NCBI RefSeq assembly: GCF_013409995.1
Contig: NZ_JACCBX010000003.1
Location: forward strand, 248,001 to 312,000
DNA: 64,000 bases
DNA from: Neobacillus driksii
GTDB taxonomy: Bacteria; Bacillota; Bacilli; Bacillales; Cytobacillaceae
Reading direction: 5' to 3'
Below, one piece after another: positions 6,324 to 59,955 of the stretch. Position numbers and translations under genes: made by a program. The notes under the pieces are model-generated. The model was not told the origin of the DNA and did not search any database. It saw only the letters and a list, made by a program, of their open reading frames with translations. The first letter of the stretch is position 1. Every line of letters starts with the position of its first letter.

Positions 6324-6384
6324 ACTATCAACCACCTCAGTTAAATAAATATGAACTTGTCCGATAAAATATGAAAAATTACAT

Positions 6385-6412
6385 AAAAAAAACCGATCAA
6401 AAAATGATCGGC
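6385..6412 (-). terminator. Terminator after ypbE
   Basis: CCGATCA / TGATCGG stem directly after the ypbE stop codon, followed on the minus strand by eight T residues. Confidence 0.85.
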
Positions 6413-7059
6413 TACTTATTTAATGGAATTTTTAGAACTTGACCTAAATAAATTTCATTACCTTTCAAGTTATTCGCTTTTCGAATAATATCCTCTCCAG
6501 CTTTTGAATGGTAATATTTCAGAGAAATTCGATAAAGATTTTCTCCCGCTTTAACAGTATGATAAATGACTTGAGGTGCAGGTTCAACATTTTTATCAGT
6601 GCCCTGCCCGCTAATAGGAGCTGGTGCAGGAGCTGGACTCTCAATTGGAGTATCCTGGCTGATGGACTTTTGAACTTCGACAGCCTCTTGATTATCCTCC
6701 ACAGGAACATTTTCTTTTTCCTCTGCTTCGGTTTCAACGGTACTTTCAGTTTCAGATTTTTCAAAGTTAATGACTTCATATCCGGAAGAGTCGCCGGTGA
6801 CTTTCTCAGTCTTGCTGCCTTTTCCCTCCTCAAGATAGGAGTAAGCACTAAAAATAACGATAGGAAGAAGAATAAAAAATAGTACCAGGATACGAATTAC
6901 CGGATATTTTATCTTCAATTTCGTTTTCTTTCTTTTTTCCCTATGGATTTGTTCTCTAGGAGGTAATTGGTCACGAACCTCAGTTGTTTCTTCATTAATT
7001 TTTTCAATTCGCCGTTTTAGCCGTTCCGCCTGGCTTCTAAAAGGTTCTTCTTTATTCAT
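6412..7059 (-). CDS. ypbE: LysM-domain membrane protein YpbE
   Basis: 215 residues. The ATG at 7059 overlaps the end of ypbD (CTTAATGAATAA) and has AGGAGGGG in front. Order: basic cytoplasmic N-terminus, one transmembrane helix (about 54-74), a long acidic and Pro/Ala-rich linker, then a LysM domain (about 168-213, YHTVKAGENLYRISLKYY...). LysM binds peptidoglycan glycan strands, so the protein spans from the membrane into the wall. Exact function unknown. Confidence 0.9.
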   Translation of the reverse strand: MNKEEPFRSQAERLKRRIEKINEETTEVRDQLPPREQIHREKRKKTKLKIKYPVIRILVLFFILLPIVIFSAYSYLEEGKGSKTEKVTGDSSGYEVINFEKSETESTVETEAEEKENVPVEDNQEAVEVQKSISQDTPIESPAPAPAPISGQGTDKNVEPAPQVIYHTVKAGENLYRISLKYYHSKAGEDIIRKANNLKGNEIYLGQVLKIPLNK

Positions 7060-7660
7060 TAAGCAGCCCCTCCTGTTCATCGACATCTATGGTGTGTTTA
7101 TATTTAATATATAGCCCTAATAAAAAATCAATTGTAAAATGCATGATCATCGTAAGAGCTAAATTGTTACTCCATTCATAAACGGAGCCAATAAAAAAAC
7201 TAAGGATGACAATATTAGAAAATAAAAACCAATTAAAAAGGTATCGAAAATGTATGATTGCAAAAATAAGACTTGCAAGAATTAATCCAACCTTCGTTTG
7301 GATTACCCCACGAAAAAGCAGCTCTTCACTGAATGCAACTAATGCAGCAATCCACGCTATGTGGAGCACACTTCTATTCTTAAAAATTCTTTCGTTCAAA
7401 CCTCCATCGTCATAAAAAGACTTAGGGAGTAATTTCATTAATATAATATCTACAATGACTACAGCTGCACCTGCTGAAACGCCAATTAACAAAATTCTCA
7501 CATCAGAAAAATCAATACTTCGCAAATATGAAAAGTGATCAAATAATAGAATGCCTAAAATAAAAGTAATGCCAAGCAGTAAGATTTGGGTCAAATATAG
7601 ATGAGAGAGCAGTTCTTTATCAGTTAATCCTTTAATTAGTTCATTATATTTATTTTTCAT
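7052..7660 (-). CDS. ypbD: CPBP-family intramembrane metalloprotease YpbD
   Basis: 202 residues with several transmembrane helices. Motifs of the CPBP (Abi/CAAX) glutamic-type family are intact: EELLFRG at 112-118, H137 in HFRY, and H174 in MIMHF. The start overlaps the recS stop by four bases (ATGA) and the 3' end overlaps ypbE, so recS-ypbD-ypbE form a tight unit. The substrate is not known for YpbD. Confidence 0.9.
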
Positions 7661-9165
7661 TTACTCATCTCACCATTTAGTAGAATATTTGCTAGATAAT
7701 CCTTCCAAGTTTCATCCTTAACAGGATAGCTTTGAATGCCAGCTTGTGCGTGGTATTGTTCAAACTGAATTCCACAAACGTCGCAGCAATTCTGATTTCT
7801 TCTCTTAACTGGCTCTTCGTCAAAATAATCTAGAATTAATTCTCTTCTACACGATTCGGATTTAATCCACTTCTTTAAATAATGTATACTGCCCTTTTTA
7901 ACCTTTAATCTATCATTAACAAAATCCTTTAAGCCCTGTTTTAAATGTTCTAGAGAGTATATTTCTAGAGGCTTTTTTATAAAATCCTGAATTATACGCC
8001 ACTGAATCTCTGAGAACCCCCCATCTTCTCTTAAATGTTGATTCATTTCAAGAAAATGGTCAATCAGTTTTTCTTCCTTGGGAAAATATGAAAATAGCCA
8101 GTCAATTTGCTGCTCTGACGGCAATTCACTTTCCGCCAGCTGTACAGGAAGCTGTTCATCTCCTGGAGAATATAGTAAAATCGCAATACTTTCCTCACCA
8201 TCGCGTCCAGCTCTACCAATCTCCTGCAGGTAGGATTCCATTTGCATTGGCATATGGTAATGAATAACAAATCGAATATTTTCTTTATTAACTCCCATTC
8301 CAAAAGCACTTGTTGCGCAGATTACATCGAGTTGCCCATGAATAAATTGTTGTTGTATCAAGATTCTTTGTTCCTGGTCTAAGCCTCCATGGTAAGCCAT
8401 GGCTCTTGATATCCCCTTCTCCGCTAATAGCGAAGCCATTTGTTCAGCAATCTTCTTACTTGAAAAATAAATGATTCCTGGTTTCTGAAGTTGACACACT
8501 AATTCTATCAGACGTGATTGTTTATCATAATAGTTAGGTACTTCTTCAATATAAAAGGCGATATTAGGTCTGTCTATCGTTGATTCAATCTTGGTATAAT
8601 TCTGTAAGTCGAGAGATTGAATAATATCTTCTCTTACTTTTTTGGTCGCCGTTGCTGTTAAAGCGAGAGTTAGGGGATTCCCCAATTGATCCCGGTATTC
8701 TCCTAACTTCGAATATTCTGGTCGAAAGTCGAAGCCCCACTGTGAAATACAATGTGCCTCATCTACTACAAATAATGATACAGAAAGCGCCTGTAATCTT
8801 TTCATTATAATAGGTAAGCTTAACATCTCGGGCGAGACGAAAATATATTTGTATTTTGTTAAATTACGTAATACATAGCCTCGCTTCTCAGCGTCAAGGA
8901 AAGAATTCAATGCAATGACCCTTTTCTCTCCAAATTTCATTAATTGTTCCACCTGGTCCTGCATTAAGGATAACAGAGGGGAAATGATTATAATTTGACC
9001 ATCCAGACAATATCCAGGGAGTTGGTAGCATAAGGACTTACCAGTGCCTGTTGGGAGCATTGCAATCGTGTGGTTCCCTCCTAGCAGAGAAGAAATAACT
9101 TCCTTTTGCCCCGTTTTAAAGGTGTTGTATCCAAAATACTTATTCAGAAGATTTTCTAATTCCAT
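7657..9165 (-). CDS. recS: ATP-dependent DNA helicase RecS (RecQ family)
   Basis: 502 residues. Walker A is TGTGKS (39-44), DEAH lies near 135, and the second RecA domain carries GMGVNK and [11 protein letters not shown] cysteine cluster (CRREL...NCCDVC, about 442-465) is the RecQ zinc-binding site. It unwinds DNA 3'-5' in replication-fork repair and recombination. At about 500 residues and without an HRDC domain it is the short RecS type rather than long RecQ. The start overlaps the ypbB stop codon (TAATG). Confidence 0.93.
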
Positions 9166-11518: not shown

Positions 11519-11653
11519 CAGAACCTCCATCTTCTCCCATCCAGACTATACTGTCGGCTTTGGAATCACACCAAATCCTGCCATAAAGGCTCGCGGGCTC
11601 AAGAGTTTTTACTCTAATACCGCCGATCGGGAATTTCACCCTGCCCCGAAGAT
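11519..11653 (-). promoter_or_regulatory. FMN riboswitch (RFN element) controlling ribU
   Basis: The minus strand carries the conserved RFN blocks in order: CTTCGGGGCAGGGTG, AATTCCCGATCGGCGGT, AGCCCGCGAGCC, CAGGATTTGGTGTGATTCC, AAAGCCGACAGT, and AGTCTGGATGGGAGAAG. These enclose the six-arm FMN aptamer. FMN binding favours the downstream terminator and lowers ribU expression. Confidence 0.97.
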
Positions 11654-11677
11654 AGATCGATATTTAATTTCTTGTTA

Positions 11678-12550: not shown

Positions 12551-12621
12551 AAGAGACGGTTGAACATACTTGTTATAATTTGGAGACAAATGGTTTTTTA
12601 TACACAAATAAATAGAAAAGT

Positions 12622-12797
12622 GGAAGGCGCCTGCCTATCGGCGACAAGCATAAGACGAGCCGGTAGGAAGGTTGCTCTTTAACCTTCTTGACGGATTGGC
12701 TGTAGACCAAAGAGCCGATGGCGCCTCCTTGTAAAAGCTAACGCTTTTCCTTCGTGCGAGGCGTCGCTTCCGAAGCTTACTCTTGTGGAACTAGACA
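12622..12797 (+). repeat. Long copy of dispersed palindromic repeat
   Basis: Core 12622-12726 begins GGAAGGCGCC and ends GATGGCGCC, with nested inverted arms (ATCGGC/GCCGAT, GAAGGTT/AACCTTC). It matches the copy at 32881-32984 almost base for base. A further 60-base segment containing AAAAGC/GCTTTT follows before the shared tail GGAACTAGACA at 12787-12797. It accounts for most of the 368-bp gap between the M23 gene and rsiX. Confidence 0.85.
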
Positions 12798-29336: not shown

Positions 29337-30641
29337 TTATTTTAAGGGAAGGTCTAACCGAAGAAGATCTTCATACGTTTCTCTTTTAACAACAAGAGCC
29401 GCCTTGCCATTTTCTACAAATACCACTGCTGGGCGTGGTATACGATTGTAATTGTTCGCCATTGAATAACCATAAGCACCGGTACAGAATACTGCCAGAA
29501 GGTCATCGTCTTCAGTCTCTGGTAGTGGTAAGTCCCAAATCAGCATATCACCTGATTCACAGCATTTACCTGCTATAGAAACTTTTTCTGTAGCTTCTGC
29601 TAAAGGTTTATTTGCTAAAACAGCTTCATACTTAGCCTGGTAGAGAGCCGGTCTAATATTGTCACTCATTCCACCGTCAACAGCCAAATATTTTCTAACT
29701 CCCGGAACTTCTTTTGATGAACCAATGTGGTAAAGGGTTGTACCTGCATCACCTACCAGTGAGCGTCCAGGCTCTATCCAAATCTCAGGCATTTCCATGG
29801 AGTATTGCTGAATTAATCTCTTAACTTCTTTAATAATTTCACTAACATATTGTGAAGGCAACAGTGGTTCATCTTCATTTGTATAGCGTATTCCAAAACC
29901 GCCGCCTAAATTTAGTACCTTAGCTTCAAAATTAAGAGTATTTTTCCATTGGTTCATTTTGCCAACAATTTTTTCAGCAGCAAGCAAGAACCCAGTTGTT
30001 TCGAAAATTTGTGACCCTATGTGACAATGCAGACCTAAAACATCGAAATGCTTAATTCGCAGCGCGGTCATTAACGCCTCTTCTGCTTGTCCATTTTGCA
30101 AATCAAATCCAAACTTAGAATCTTCCTGCCCTGTTAAGATGTAATCATGGGTATGTGCTTCAATTCCAGGAGTAACCCTAAGCAGAATGCTTATTGTTTC
30201 ATTTTTTTCAAGGCAAATGGTTTTTAAAAGTTCTAATTCGTAAAAATTATCCACCACAATACAGCCAATTTTGTGTTCTAGCGCCATTTCTAGTTCTTCT
30301 CTACTTTTATTGTTTCCATGAAAGTGAATTCTGTCTGATGGAAACCCGGCCGCGATGGCGGTATATAACTCTCCACCCGATACAACATCAAGCGATAACC
30401 CTTCTTCTTCCGCCAGCTGTAACATGGCAATCGTTGAAAATGCCTTACTTGCATATGCAACCTGGGCTTTGACGTTTTGTTCTTCAAACGTCTTTTTAAA
30501 ACCTCTAGCCCTTTCCCTCATTAATGAAACGTCATAAACATAGAGAGGAGTTCCAAATTGCTCGGCCAACTCTACTGCATCTACTCCGCCTATTTCCAAA
30601 TTACCCTTGCCGTTTACGCCTGTTGTCCCGTAAAAATACAT
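29337..30641 (-). CDS. lysA: Diaminopimelate decarboxylase LysA
   Basis: 434 residues, PLP-dependent fold III decarboxylase. K66 in YASKAF binds PLP; HIGSQI and GGGFG loops hold the phosphate; C-terminal CCESGD supplies the active-site cysteine from the second subunit. It makes L-lysine from meso-DAP, the last step of the pathway. It follows spoVAF, as in B. subtilis, with a terminator between them. Confidence 0.96.
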   Translation of the reverse strand: MYFYGTTGVNGKGNLEIGGVDAVELAEQFGTPLYVYDVSLMRERARGFKKTFEEQNVKAQVAYASKAFSTIAMLQLAEEEGLSLDVVSGGELYTAIAAGFPSDRIHFHGNNKSREELEMALEHKIGCIVVDNFYELELLKTICLEKNETISILLRVTPGIEAHTHDYILTGQEDSKFGFDLQNGQAEEALMTALRIKHFDVLGLHCHIGSQIFETTGFLLAAEKIVGKMNQWKNTLNFEAKVLNLGGGFGIRYTNEDEPLLPSQYVSEIIKEVKRLIQQYSMEMPEIWIEPGRSLVGDAGTTLYHIGSSKEVPGVRKYLAVDGGMSDNIRPALYQAKYEAVLANKPLAEATEKVSIAGKCCESGDMLIWDLPLPETEDDDLLAVFCTGAYGYSMANNYNRIPRPAVVFVENGKAALVVKRETYEDLLRLDLPLK

Positions 30642-30805: not shown

Positions 30806-32290
30806 TTATTGTTCCCCCGGCGGCTGACGGTATCGATTCCTAGGATGTACGATACTAGGACGAAATATCGCTCCTGGTACAGCACGGCGAAAAATAATTT
30901 GCAAGAATCCCTTAGGTTCGAAAGGGAGAAAGGGCCAAAAATAGGGAGTATTAAGTGCTCGTGTTGTTACTAGATGAATAAACAGCAGTGTAGAACCAAT
31001 CACAAAGCCCGGAGTATGGAAGATTGCCACGAGTATTACCAGGATCATTCTGGCTATTTTATTGGCTACACTTAATTCATAGCTTGGTGTCGTAAAGGAA
31101 CCAATACCAGCAACAGCAACATAAAGAATCACTTCTGGAACAAATAAGCCAACATCAATGGCAATCTGGCCGATTAACACTGCAGCAATTAACCCCATTG
31201 CTGTTGAAAGAGGAGTAGGCGTATGTATTGCTGCGATTTTTAAAAATTCCAGCCCGAAATCTGCTAATAGTATCTGTAATACAATTGGAATATTGGTATG
31301 CTCGTTTGGTCCAATAAACGAAAGCCTTTCTGGAAGCAAAGATGGTTCTAACACGAATAACATCCATAATGGAAGTAAAAAGATTGATGTTAAAATACCT
31401 AAAAATCGAGACCAACGGACAAATGTCCCCATAACAGGAGCTTCACGGAACTCCTCAGCATGTTGGACATGATGAAAATAAGTGGTTGGTGCAATAATGA
31501 CACTCGGAGAGGTATCAACATATATAACGACATGACCCTCTAATAGATGTGCGGCGGCGACATCAGCACGTTCTGTATACCTAACTAATGGATATGGATT
31601 TAATCCTTGTTTTAAAAGAAACTCTTCAATGGTTTTATCTGCCATTGGGATTCCATCCACTTTAATGGCTTTAAGTTCTTTTCGAATAATATTTACTAGG
31701 TTAGGATCGGCAATGTCATTTATGTAACCAATTGCTATATCAGTTTTTGAACGTTCACCTACCTTAAGAATTTCAAAACGCAGCCGTTCATCTCGTATTC
31801 GTCTTCTTGTTAATGCAGTATTCAGCACTATATTTTCAACAAAACCATCACGAGAACCTCTAACTACTTTTTCCGTGTCAGGTTCCATAGGTGTTCTACC
31901 CGGATAGCTCCTTACATCAACGGCAAGTGCAGTATTTGCACCCTCGACTACAACAACTATTAATCCAGATAATACCTGTGTAACCATTTCATCCAGTGTT
32001 TTTATTGGCTGTACAGATTGATTTACCAGCCTGTTTTCAACTATTTTAAAAAGGTCAGAAGATAATTTTTCATGATCATTAATTTGAACTAGTTCTTCAA
32101 CTGTTTCTATAATAAAACCAGTATCACATAAACCAGTTATCCAATAGAAGTGTACATCCTTTTTAAGAATTTTTAACTTCCGTACCCCAAAGTCAAAACT
32201 CACACCTAAACCGACCCGCTGTTTCATGTAATGTTCTATTTCTAGCAGTGACTCAGGAATCGGCCATGTTTGTTCGTTCTCTCTCGTCAC
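30806..32290 (-). CDS. spoVAF: Stage V sporulation protein AF (GerA-like)
   Basis: 494 residues from GTG at 32290: AAAGGAG lies eight bases upstream, whereas the GTG at 32299 overlaps it. It resembles germinant-receptor A subunits: N-terminal soluble domain, then five or more membrane helices (about 290-450). In B. subtilis it joins germinant receptors and the SpoVA channel and modulates germination. The 5' end overlaps spoVAEA. Confidence 0.93.
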
Positions 32291-32852
32291 GAAATCCACT
32301 CCTTTCGAGTATTAACTCTACCGCCTTTTTCGTAATAGGCGCTCCGCGTTCATAGTGATCACGCCGCGCCATTTTCCCCACATCTCCGATTCCTACGATA
32401 ATTGGAACATCAAGTTCGTCAAGGCAGTAAACCGTATCTCCATTTAATCTTCCAATCTCTAGCTCTGGTATACCGTGTTTATCGACGCCATAAGGTGTTA
32501 GTTCACCATCTCGATCGATACTCACATCAATTCTTGTCCACTCTGCCTGATGGGTTTTTGCAGCTACAGCAATAATTCCCAAAACTTCAATATCCTTATG
32601 GGTGGCGACATATTTTAATGCCCGTTCGCCTGCACCTTCTCCAACAAGTCCACTATCATCAAACATTACTAATACTGGGTCATTAGCTGCTTTTTTTATT
32701 AACTTCACAAGTTCTTCCCCTGTTAAAACGGAGGGGTTTCCATGTGACATAGTGATACATCGCCCGCCAACTTCGCGTGCGACATGCTCAACTGCCCTTT
32801 TTGCATACTCATCACCATCAGTAATTAATATAACCCGCCTTCGAATGCTCAT
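32253..32852 (-). CDS. spoVAEA: Stage V sporulation protein AEA
   Basis: 199 residues, soluble. The start [19 protein letters not shown] and internal SHGNPS and GIGDVGK blocks are the SpoVAEA signature. AAAGGA precedes the ATG. It should follow spoVAC, spoVAD and spoVAEB; here it follows spoVAB directly, separated only by a dispersed repeat. It overlaps spoVAF by 38 bases. Confidence 0.93.
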
Positions 32853-32880
32853 ACTTGTTGTCCTTTCTAGTTAGAAATGC

Positions 32881-32995
32881 GGAAGGCGCCCGCTCATCGG
32901 CGACAAGCAAAAGACGAGCCGGCATGAAGGTTGCCCTTTAACCTTCTTGCCGGATTGGCTTTTGACCTCGAGCCGATGGCGCCTGAAGCTAGACA
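32881..32995 (+). repeat. Long copy of dispersed palindromic repeat, inside the spoVA operon
   Basis: GGAAGGCGCC...GATGGCGCCTGAAGCTAGACA. Nested inverted arms GGCGCC/GGCGCC, ATCGGC/GCCGAT, GCCGG/CCGG and GAAGGTT/AACCTTC could fold the whole element into one long hairpin. It matches 12622-12726 with few differences and lies between spoVAB and spoVAEA where three genes are expected. Confidence 0.9.
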
Positions 32996-33004
32996 AGCCC
33001 CGGA

Positions 33005-33427
33005 TTAATGATGCACAAAATAGACCCATTGAAAAATTGACCCAGCAATTTTCCCTAGAACAATCGCCATTATAAGAATGATAATTTTCCCATCTATCCC
33101 CATCCTTTTGGCAAGGACAGGGAATACATTTAATGCTTCTGTGAGCCCTGCGGCTAACATCCCAACAAAGACCCCTCCAGCCAATCCAAGAGGCACCATA
33201 AAATAAGGAGAGATTCCTAAGATTGGGTCTCTTAAACTCCCTGCTATCCCTGTTAGTGCCCCCATAACAACGGCCCATTCGTAATACCGAATCATTTTCA
33301 TTGTCTTTGTCAGCTGTGTAAGTCTCGGGATAATACCAAGTACTGTCAGAAAAGCTACAAAACCTGAACCAACTGCTAATCCACCTGCAAGGCCAATAAA
33401 CATAACCGCAATTACTTTAATCGTCAT
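33005..33427 (-). CDS. spoVAB: Stage V sporulation protein AB
   Basis: 140 residues, about four membrane helices. Conserved segments GLAGGLAVGSGFVAFLTVLG and VFVGMLAAGLTEALNV match SpoVAB. It overlaps spoVAA by 11 bases. In B. subtilis it takes part, in an uncertain way, in dipicolinate movement by the SpoVA complex. The usual following genes AC, AD and AEB are absent. Confidence 0.94.
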   Translation of the reverse strand: MTIKVIAVMFIGLAGGLAVGSGFVAFLTVLGIIPRLTQLTKTMKMIRYYEWAVVMGALTGIAGSLRDPILGISPYFMVPLGLAGGVFVGMLAAGLTEALNVFPVLAKRMGIDGKIIILIMAIVLGKIAGSIFQWVYFVHH

Positions 33428-34037
33428 TTGTTCGTTTCATACTTTCTTTATTTTCATGAATGATGACATAATTATCTAAGTCCATTTGATAATTAAACAT
33501 CTCGACTTCCAGGGGACTTGGTTCTTCGTTGATCCTTTTTTGAAATACATGATTAAAGAATAAAATCATCCCTAAGCCTAACCCAATTGAATAGGGAATT
33601 TGAAATATCCACGGCTTGGTATCCTCCACACCCGTAATGATTTTGTATAGCTTTTCCTGAACACTTCGCATACTGACATCGTCATGAAAGTTCATAATCG
33701 CCATCGCAGAACCAAAAAATAACAAAAACCATATTAAGATAAAGAAAGGTAACGACATTTGTTTTTTCTTTAGTATGACTTCTACAATCGTTTGCGCCGG
33801 TCCGATGGTTTGGACATCTGCATTTTCGATAAGATTTGAAATCAATCTAATAACCTTCATAACATCAATGATGACGATATTTCTGTCATGAACGGATATT
33901 TGATGGACTTTTAGTTTTTTTAATTTAGGGATTATGGTTTCTGGAGCAATGATTTGAGCTATGTCGTCTAAATAGATACTTTCTTCGGGCTTAGCCAGAA
34001 CACGATTCCGCATGCGGATGTAGATTGTTTTTTCCAA
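33417..34037 (-). CDS. spoVAA: Stage V sporulation protein AA
   Basis: 206 residues from TTG at 34037, giving the family N-terminus EKTIYIRMRNRVLA, with GGGGAG eight bases upstream; an ATG at 34055 overlaps that region. N-terminal soluble domain and two membrane helices near 95-115 and 150-172. First gene of the spoVA operon and preceded by a sigma-G-like -10. Confidence 0.92.
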   Translation of the reverse strand: MEKTIYIRMRNRVLAKPEESIYLDDIAQIIAPETIIPKLKKLKVHQISVHDRNIVIIDVMKVIRLISNLIENADVQTIGPAQTIVEVILKKKQMSLPFFILIWFLLFFGSAMAIMNFHDDVSMRSVQEKLYKIITGVEDTKPWIFQIPYSIGLGLGMILFFNHVFQKRINEEPSPLEVEMFNYQMDLDNYVIIHENKESMKRTNDD

Positions 34038-34074
34038 AACATTCACTCCCCACACATTGATTTCCTTGTATAAC

Positions 34075-34081
34075 TAGTATG
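34075..34081 (-). promoter_or_regulatory. Sigma-G-like -10 (CATACTA) upstream of spoVAA
   Basis: CATACTA on the minus strand, the forespore sigma-G -10 consensus, about 40 bases before the spoVAA start. The -35 region (TTAGTA at about 17 bases) is poor. spoVA is sigma-G dependent in B. subtilis. Confidence 0.5.
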
Positions 34082-34102: not shown

Positions 34103-34145
34103 AAAAAAAAGACCGAATGGATCATCAGAGATCCATTCGGTCTTT
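34103..34145 (-). terminator. Terminator of the spoIIA operon, overlapping the end of sigF
   Basis: AAAGACCGAATGGAT / ATCCATTCGGTCTTT, a 15-bp perfect stem followed by TTTTT on the minus strand. The sigF stop codon lies in the loop, so the last codons form the 5' arm. Confidence 0.9.
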
Positions 34146-34889
34146 CATTTGCTGCAATATCTTCTTCTCAAGTCTTGAAACCTGCACCTGGGAAATACCC
34201 AGTCTGACTGCAACTTCTGATTGGGTTTGGTCTTTATAATACCGTAAATAAACGATTAGCCGCTCACGTTCATCCAATTCCCGTATTGCTTCTTTTAAGG
34301 CAATTTTATCGAACCATTTACCTTCATTTCCGTCATCTATCTGATCTAATAAGGTAATAGGATCTCCGTCATTCTCATATACCGTTTCATGAATAGAAGA
34401 TGGCGTCCGACTTGCCTCCTGGGCAAGAATAACATCCTCCGGCGACAGCTGAAGATGCTCTGAAATTTCGTTAACAGTTGGAATTCTTCCGTATGTCTTC
34501 GATAATTCATCCTTCGCCTTTCGAATTCGGTTTCCCATTTCCTTTAATGAACGGCTAACCTTAACCGTTCCATCATCACGAATAAACCTTTGGATTTCAC
34601 CAATAATCATTGGAACCGCATAGGTAGAAAATTTCACATCATAGGAAAGATCAAACTTATCCACTGATTTCAGCAATCCGATACATCCTATTTGGAAAAG
34701 ATCATCAGGATCATATCCCCTATTTAGAAACCGCTGGACAACGGACCAAACAAGACGCATATTTTTTTCAGCAATTAGGTCTCTTGCTGCTTGGTCTCCG
34801 TCTTGGCTTTTTTTAATCAATTCCTTTACTTCATGGTCCTTTAAATACGTTTGCGCTTTATCTTTTTTGACCTCCACATCCATTGGCAA
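34125..34889 (-). CDS. sigF: RNA polymerase sigma-F factor
   Basis: 254 residues. Region 2 (DLFQIGCIGLLKSVDKFDLSYDVKFSTYA), region 3 and region 4 helix-turn-helix (TQSEVAVRLGISQVQVSRLEKKI) place it in the sporulation sigma group. It is the first forespore-specific sigma factor, held by SpoIIAB until release by SpoIIAA. Third gene of spoIIAA-spoIIAB-sigF. Confidence 0.96.
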   Translation of the reverse strand: MPMDVEVKKDKAQTYLKDHEVKELIKKSQDGDQAARDLIAEKNMRLVWSVVQRFLNRGYDPDDLFQIGCIGLLKSVDKFDLSYDVKFSTYAVPMIIGEIQRFIRDDGTVKVSRSLKEMGNRIRKAKDELSKTYGRIPTVNEISEHLQLSPEDVILAQEASRTPSSIHETVYENDGDPITLLDQIDDGNEGKWFDKIALKEAIRELDERERLIVYLRYYKDQTQSEVAVRLGISQVQVSRLEKKILQQMKDRMDL

Positions 34890-59459: not shown

Positions 59460-59734
59460 GCAAACTAAATTCTAAAGTGCAAAATACCTATTTTCACGTT
59501 AAAATCGGCTTTAAGATTTTAACAACAATATTTACGAAAATAGCCTTAAATAGAATGTGAACATTTTTTGACAATTATTTATATGGTAAGTGTAACGAAT
59601 TTCCCTTTCGATTGTCATTATTTTTGCATAATATATTTAAAATAAATAAAAAATTCAGATTTTATCACTTGACAGAAGGGCCATTATCTTGGATAATCAC
59701 TATTAAAATTTGATTCGAACATTCGCGATGATTA

Positions 59735-59955
59735 AGACCAGTAAATGAAAAATGGCAAAAGAGAGTGAAGTCCATCGGCTGAAAGTCTTCACAGCCCTCT
59801 TTATCATTGAACCTAGCTTATGAGCACTTAGGAAAACCTAACGTAATCCGGCGTTATCGGAGTCGAGTGAACCCTATTATGTATTTAGTTTGGGTAAATG
59901 AAGGTGGTACCACGGAAGCTAGACCTTTCGTCCTTTTCGGATGAGAGGTCTTTTT
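59735..59955 (+). promoter_or_regulatory. Proline T-box riboswitch upstream of proI
   Basis: The T-box sequence AAGGTGGTACCACG (59901-59914) pairs with the uncharged tRNA 3' end. The specifier in stem I reads CCT (59812-59814, in GAACCTAGC), a proline codon. The usual AGTA and GAGAG motifs precede it. Low charged tRNA-Pro should relieve termination. Confidence 0.93.
59921..59955 (+). terminator. T-box regulated terminator
   Basis: AGACCTTTCGTCC / GGATGAGAGGTCT stem with G-T pairs and TTTTTG tail, directly after the T-box sequence. Confidence 0.9.

What the first reader, a model, noticed from the sequence alone, without database searches (positions are those of the whole stretch)
32253..34037. 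spoVA operon without spoVAC, spoVAD and spoVAEB
The order here is spoVAA, spoVAB, then directly spoVAEA and spoVAF. In B. subtilis three genes (AC, AD, AEB), which form the essential DPA channel part, lie in between. Only a 115-bp repeat is found. The genes must be elsewhere in the genome, or spores would lack DPA uptake.
Basis: partly seen in the sequence, partly recalled or inferred. Interest (0 to 1): 0.75.

Follow-up and report, generated by a model that had tools for sequence, protein, structure and literature searches.

The report
Spore operon without its channel genes
In these soil bacteria the three genes for the channel that loads spores with dipicolinic acid have been lost from their usual operon and a second, distantly related set elsewhere in the genome remains, while the neighbouring germination genes are kept intact, so the two halves of a classic spore operon can be separated.

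Summary
The order is sigF-spoVAA-spoVAB-spoVAEA-spoVAF-lysA with no spoVAC, spoVAD or spoVAEB. It is not an assembly fault: 80 of 80 named related loci (best 80 of 161; Neobacillus, Mesobacillus, Cytobacillus, Rossellomorea and others) show it. The window genome has one core set, on another contig: lipoprotein gene-spoVAC-spoVAD-spoVAEB of the spoVA2 (5A2) type. In a SpoVAD tree all 58 non-operon rows form one clade, and all 26 operon rows fall outside. The loss is old and repeated: one 41-row clade lacks the core, and a SigF+LysA+SpoVAF tree needs at least 6 changes; one single loss is rejected. The retained genes are under strong purifying selection (median dN/dS 0.03-0.06) and keep most columns conserved in intact operons. 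Best reading: 5A2 transports DPA, while spoVAA/AB/AEA/AF stay for germination signalling with FigP. Published B. anthracis genetics predicts the SpoVAF part; for AA, AB and AEA it is inference. The 115-bp repeat is a dispersed palindromic element, not the deletion scar. New variant of a known kind; not found in the papers I searched.

The parts
33417..34055 (-). spoVAA
   Evidence: PF12164 79.5 bits, cut-off 25
33005..33427 (-). spoVAB
   Evidence: PF13782 115.4 bits, cut-off 25
32871..32995 (.). dispersed palindromic repeat inserted in the spoVAB-spoVAEA junction
   Evidence: second copy at 12613-12726, 87% over 114 bp; predicted hairpin -57 kcal/mol; absent from the same junction in several close relatives
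32253..32852 (-). spoVAEA
   Evidence: PF14097 279.4 bits; NCBIfam NF052647 349.9 bits, cut-off 200
30806..32299 (-). spoVAF (GerA-family ion channel subunit)
   Evidence: PF03323 503.9 bits; position after spoVAEA and before lysA as in the intact operons fetched. NCBIfam has no SpoVAF match; best is GerXA far below its cut-off (214 of 850)
34075..34081 (-). CATACTA motif ahead of spoVAA, like the -10 element of sigma-G promoters (consensus recalled)
   Evidence: also present ahead of spoVAA in 13 of 14 relatives printed, core-less and intact
34125..34889 (-). sigF, upstream neighbour
   Evidence: Pfam sigma-70 regions 2, 3, 4; same neighbour in relatives
29337..30641 (-). lysA, downstream neighbour
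   Evidence: PF02784 and PF00278; same neighbour in relatives

Best explanation
An ancestor of this clade had two sets of the DPA-channel core: one inside the spoVA operon (5A1) and one in a separate cluster with a YhcN/YlaJ-type lipoprotein (5A2). The 5A1 core genes spoVAC-spoVAD-spoVAEB were deleted from the operon; [quoted passage not shown] The rest of the operon was kept because it does another job: SpoVAF with FigP forms the ion channel that amplifies the germinant signal, and SpoVAA, SpoVAB and (less strictly) SpoVAEA serve germination control rather than being parts of the 5A1 channel. Shown here: the arrangement, its age and repetition, the 5A2 identity of the remaining core, and continued purifying selection on the four genes. 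Taken from published genetics: 5A2 suffices for DPA import, and SpoVAF/FigP but not D1/Eb1 matter for germination, in B. anthracis. Inferred: that the same division of labour holds in Neobacillus, and the roles of SpoVAA, SpoVAB and SpoVAEA.
For: Own genome has only one C/Eb pair, with SpoVAD between and the lipoprotein gene ahead. Its SpoVAD scores 596 bits with PRK12404 and 456 with PRK08304; of ten more SpoVAD tested, five in-operon ones prefer PRK08304 and five non-operon ones prefer PRK12404. SpoVAD tree: 58 of 58 non-operon rows in one clade (SH-aLRT 100, branch 0.77), 26 of 26 operon rows outside (f1 rows are 30 of the 59 fetched). Core-less junction in 80 of 80 named loci, 20 of 20 further genera of the window's family and 14 of 40 loci from 38 other families, those 14 keeping AA, AB, AEA and AF. 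Minimum 6 changes on the tree; one 41-row core-less clade at SH-aLRT 99; single origin rejected, p-AU 3e-42. Median dN/dS in Neobacillus: AA 0.063, AB 0.056, AEA 0.039, AF 0.034, beside lysA 0.034 and sigF 0.003. No column with a switched conserved residue and none losing conservation in AA, AB or AEA. 16 of 16 family genomes that lack spoVAEA still keep AA-AB-AF. FigP (YqhR) found in 101 of 101 family genomes. PMC13059800 sections 6, 8 and 12.
Against: No experiment exists in this clade. SpoVAA/SpoVAB could be kept because they act on the 5A2 core. SpoVAB evolves slightly faster in core-less lineages (2.80 against 2.46 times SigF) and keeps 46 of 54 columns conserved in intact operons, fewer than AA (55 of 57) or AEA (61 of 65). 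In B. anthracis insertions in 5A1 were neutral through sporulation, heat, germination and outgrowth (PMC13059800 section 5), so the genes' value there is not large in that test. Two core-damaged lineages also lost AA and AB (f36, f46). FigP matches have stops inside in 2 of 101 genomes (G083, G090), and FigP also stays where spoVAEA is gone.
Confidence: 0.72

Rival explanations
1. SpoVAA, SpoVAB and SpoVAEA were kept because they now serve the 5A2 channel directly (as partners or regulators of C2/D2/Eb2), so the operon is split in place but still one machine.
For: 5A1 and 5A2 cores are homologous, so an interface could carry over; the columns conserved in AA and AB are mostly the same in core-less and intact lineages, as expected if the partner surface is shared.
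Against: The B. cereus 5A2 locus replaces the whole native 5A operon for DPA import in B. subtilis, where AA and AB are then absent (PMC13059800 section 12). The review passage read says loss of AA or AB causes premature germination that gerA deletion suppresses, with normal DPA (PMC11841064).
Confidence: 0.22
2. Assembly artefact: the core genes are collapsed or lost in a gap at the repeat.
For: A repeat does sit exactly at the junction.
Against: 80 of 80 named loci and six complete chromosomes show the same junction, most without a full repeat; the core is found once elsewhere.
Confidence: 0.01
3. The core was moved, not replaced: the set on contig C4 is the operon's own core translocated.
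For: Exactly one core set remains in the genome.
Against: Its SpoVAD belongs to the 5A2-type clade and subfamily, it carries the lipoprotein gene, and intact relatives hold both sets.
Confidence: 0.02
4. The four leftover genes are decaying remnants without function.
For: spoVAEA is lost in 15 of 101 family genomes sampled and AA/AB are lost in lineages f36 and f46.
Against: dN/dS 0.03-0.06, rates relative to SigF close to those in intact operons, no loss of conserved columns in AA, AB or AEA, AA-AB-AF kept even where AEA went, across ten families.
Confidence: 0.03

Closest known systems
spoVA operon of Bacillus subtilis / spoVA1 of the B. cereus group
   Same: Position between sigF and lysA in intact relatives fetched here, order of AA, AB, AEA, AF, CATACTA motif ahead of AA
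   Different: spoVAC, spoVAD and spoVAEB are absent
spoVA2 (5A2) locus of B. anthracis / B. cereus (PMC13059800)
   Same: Lipoprotein (YhcN/YlaJ family) gene followed by spoVAC, spoVAD, spoVAEB; SpoVAD of the 5A2-type subfamily
   Different: Only four genes recognised; the flanking genes tested are DUF1360, CotZ, CotO, FabI-like and SpoVIF, not DUF1657 or DUF421. In B. anthracis it exists beside a complete 5A1 operon; here it is the only core
spoVA2mob on Tn1546 (PMC5133452, passages)
   Same: Same core gene set
   Different: The window genome's set lies among spore coat genes, not in a transposon context that I could see, and follows the species grouping in the SpoVAD tree; mobile-like copies of other family genomes form a separate group there
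SpoVAF/FigP germination ion channel (PMC11841064, PMC13059800)
   Same: Both genes present in the window genome
   Different: Here SpoVAF is encoded in an operon that no longer encodes any DPA channel

Membership tests
spoVA1-type operon | spoVAA, spoVAB, spoVAEA, spoVAF in order between sigF and lysA | tested here: met
spoVA1-type operon | spoVAC-spoVAD-spoVAEB between spoVAB and spoVAEA | tested here: not met
spoVA2 (5A2) cluster | spoVAC, spoVAD, spoVAEB in a row at a separate locus | tested here: met
spoVA2 (5A2) cluster | YhcN/YlaJ-family lipoprotein gene (NJ2) next to the core | tested here: met
   PF09580 27.5 bits against cut-off 26.3, so only just; position ahead of spoVAC
spoVA2 (5A2) cluster | SpoVAD groups with 5A2-type rather than operon-type SpoVAD | tested here: met
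   the label 5A2 rests on the PRK12404 split and on genomes holding both sets, no B. anthracis sequence was fetched
spoVA2 (5A2) cluster | flanking DUF1657 and DUF421/DUF1657 genes (seven-gene form) | tested here: not met
   neighbours tested are other families; not every small ORF was scanned
functional DPA importer | DPA accumulation depends on the locus | not testable with these tools
   needs mutants and DPA assay
SpoVAF/FigP channel | both proteins encoded in the genome | tested here: met
   (FigP at G000:C3:400851-401306, outside the window)

The most novel reading that the evidence does not exclude
The classic seven-gene spoVA operon is two separable machines. SpoVAA, SpoVAB, SpoVAEA and SpoVAF, with FigP, form a germination-control unit that does not need the operon's own DPA channel; whole families of spore-formers have run on this unit plus 5A2 since their common ancestor, and at least five other lineages reached the same state independently whenever a 5A2 set was at hand.
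Probability: 0.5. Interest if true: 0.65.

Novelty: new variant of a known kind. Interest (0 to 1): 0.5.

Why it matters
In B. subtilis it is hard to separate the roles of the spoVA genes because spores without the core are not viable. Here evolution has removed the core and kept the rest, repeatedly, so SpoVAA, SpoVAB, SpoVAEA and SpoVAF can be studied apart from their own channel in culturable, harmless soil species. It also shows that the 5A2 set can be the only DPA channel over long evolutionary times, and it warns that gene-order or presence tables based on B. subtilis will misread these genera.

Tried and rejected
Homology of SpoVAB or SpoVAA to the channel proteins, which would let them stand in for the core: profile-profile comparison found none (AB with C or Eb under 1% probability; C with Eb 100% as control).

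The repeat as the scar of the deletion: rejected, because relatives with the same core-less junction lack it or carry shortened remnants.

A remnant of the spoVAEB 3' end as ribosome-binding site of spoVAEA: GAAAGGA precedes spoVAEA in 71 of 115 core-less and 8 of 24 intact loci, but also spoVAF in 98 of 115, so it is not specific; left out of the argument.

Faster decay of 5A1 SpoVAD wherever 5A2 is present: two such rows have very long branches (f5 1.31, f26 1.86), but the other two-set genomes do not stand out by eye; not claimed.

Limits: the species tree is a quick search with 25 of 67 inner branches under 80; one locus per family outside the window's family except three; family f17, which has spoVAEA, was not fetched (its coordinates look intact). 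f5 (core present but much diverged) and f46 (only spoVAD left) were scored as intact in the count of changes. The SpoVAD place list was cut off by the tool. For the family and genus searches I compared SpoVAD and SpoVAEA coordinates by eye only: none adjacent in 86 and 59 genomes, but many are drafts with the two on different contigs.

Full report
Observation. On the minus strand of the window the genes run sigF (34889-34125), spoVAA (34055-33417), spoVAB (33427-33005), spoVAEA (32852-32253), spoVAF (32299-30806), lysA (30641-29337). Between spoVAB and spoVAEA there are 152 bp, mostly a palindromic repeat. There is no spoVAC, spoVAD or spoVAEB.

Where the core is. In the window genome (6.5 Mb, 31 contigs) the SpoVAC/SpoVAEB family has exactly two matches, both on contig C4. 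The region (L003) reads, in gene direction, a YhcN/YlaJ-family lipoprotein gene, spoVAC, spoVAD, spoVAEB. Neighbours are DUF1360, CotZ, CotO and an enoyl-ACP reductase on one side and SpoVIF on the other. The lipoprotein match is just over its cut-off. This is the layout of the 5A2 complex described in B. anthracis: C2, D2, Eb2 and the lipoprotein NJ2 (PMC13059800; abstract and sections 3, 5, 6, 8, 12 and 13 read).

How wide. In the window's genus 61 of 61 genomes have the SpoVAC/SpoVAEB family (56 of them exactly two matches) and 59 of 61 have spoVAEA. A scan of public genomes with SpoVAEA kept the best 80 of 161 relatives; 80 of 80 have no core gene in the fetched stretch and 79 of 80 have all of AA, AB, AEA, AF (one stretch starts inside the operon). 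Two of the 80 come from one strain, and a few are metagenome bins. Names include Neobacillus, Mesobacillus, Cytobacillus, Rossellomorea and Pseudoneobacillus.

I then fetched one locus from each of 20 further genera of the window's family (f1) and 40 loci from 38 other families of the order. All 20 f1 loci lack the core. Of the 40 others, 14 lack the core but keep AA, AB, AEA and AF (f9, f19, f24, f25, f27, f28, f30 twice, f31, f33, f35, f38, f39, f42), 23 hold the core in place, one (f36) lacks AA, AB and core, one (f46) keeps only spoVAD of AA-AB-C-D-Eb, and one (f5) has all three core genes in place but very diverged. Five of these 60 loci repeat loci of the named set. The gap between spoVAB and spoVAEA is bimodal.

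Family genomes without spoVAEA. Fifteen of 101 sampled f1 genomes lack a spoVAEA match. For 14 f1-sample genomes from outside the genus and two of the genus, 16 in all, I fetched the stretch after sigF: 16 of 16 keep AA, AB and AF and none has the core. FigP (YqhR family) is found in 101 of 101 f1 genomes, in two of them with stop codons inside the match.

Age and number of losses. A tree of SigF, LysA and SpoVAF (72 rows, quick search) holds one clade of 41 rows that are all core-less, SH-aLRT 99, and needs at least 6 changes of state over the whole tree. Forcing all 46 core-less rows into one clade is rejected (p-AU 3e-42). Many inner branches are weak, so the exact number is open.

Which core remains. 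A SpoVAD tree with 84 rows puts all 58 rows taken from outside spoVA operons in one clade (SH-aLRT 100, branch length 0.77) and all 26 in-operon rows outside it. The 58 are 19 from order-level genomes with a missing or damaged operon core, 8 second copies of intact genomes, 30 of the 59 f1 loci, and the window genome. NCBIfam gives the same split on the 11 proteins tested. The lipoprotein gene is detected beside spoVAD in 15 of 19 order-level loci and 58 of 59 f1 loci. So in this sample every genome that lost the operon core has a 5A2-type core.

What happened to the four genes. Against ten near relatives the median dN/dS is 0.063 (AA), 0.056 (AB), 0.039 (AEA) and 0.034 (AF), with lysA 0.034 and sigF 0.003; saturated pairs dropped out, leaving 9 or 10 each. 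Distances relative to SigF, at SigF distance 0.10-0.25, are close in core-less and intact lineages: AA 3.34 and 3.49, AB 2.80 and 2.46, AEA 2.40 and 2.47, AF 2.37 and 2.44 (pairs are not independent). Of columns conserved in intact operons, the core-less clade also conserves 55 of 57 in AA, 46 of 54 in AB, 61 of 65 in AEA, 162 of 183 in AF, beside 156 of 162 in SigF and 191 of 201 in LysA; no conserved column switched residue in any of the six. A CATACTA motif, like a sigma-G -10 element (recalled), stands ahead of spoVAA in the window and 13 of 14 relatives printed.

Mechanism. In B. anthracis, deletion of the whole 5A1 operon leaves sporulation and DPA at wild-type level, but slows germination; insertions in F1 or figP copy that defect, insertions in D1 or Eb1 do not (PMC13059800 sections 6, 8). 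That is just the pattern found here: the operon's channel genes were expendable where 5A2 existed, and spoVAF was not. For B. subtilis the review passages read say that loss of SpoVAA or SpoVAB causes premature germination that gerA deletion suppresses with normal DPA, and that SpoVAEA and SpoVAF affect germination only (PMC11841064). So I read AA, AB, AEA, AF and FigP as germination control that is kept for itself. Whether AA and AB instead act on 5A2 is not settled by sequence. AB and AA are not detectably related to the channel proteins.

The repeat. The element at 32871-32995 has a second copy at 12613-12726 (87%) and a strong hairpin. At the same junction some near relatives have a full or shortened element and others none. 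It came or moved after the core was lost, or was removed cleanly in some lines; either way it is not needed for the core-less state.

Literature. Searches of the held library showed no paper describing this split; the library lacks most subscription journals, and the SpoVAF/FigP paper itself was not held. PMC3533761 and PMC5133452 were seen in passages only. PMC3533761 lists spoVAC, spoVAD and spoVAEB among genes of all spore-formers, without reference to which set is meant in the passages seen.

Verdict. It is a new variant of a known operon with a clear reading: loss of one of two DPA channel sets, with retention of the germination genes.

Noticed in passing
window 32871-32995 and 12613-12726: Dispersed palindromic element of about 115-125 bp; shortened and tandem forms in related loci (two copies in L195, three in L223). 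Copy number in the whole genome not searched.
   Followed up: partly
L202 (f5, G155), 6335-8189: In-place 5A1 core with open frames but extreme divergence (SpoVAD branch 1.31) in a genome that also has 5A2: perhaps a core on its way out or with a changed role.
   Followed up: partly
L236 (f46, G196) and L228 (f36, G186): Other ways the operon broke: f46 keeps only spoVAD ahead of spoVAEA-spoVAF; f36 lost spoVAA, spoVAB and core but keeps spoVAEA-spoVAF.
   Followed up: no
L283-L298: spoVAEA alone was lost in 16 genomes fetched (seven genera of f1) while AA, AB and AF stayed, so SpoVAEA is the most dispensable of the four here.
   Followed up: partly
G033:C242, G014:C146: Extra SpoVAC/SpoVAEB or SpoVAD matches with stop codons inside, possible broken additional copies.
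   Followed up: no
window 11525-11657 (-) and 59719-59938 (+): FMN riboswitch and T-box leader at Rfam gathering score.
   Followed up: no
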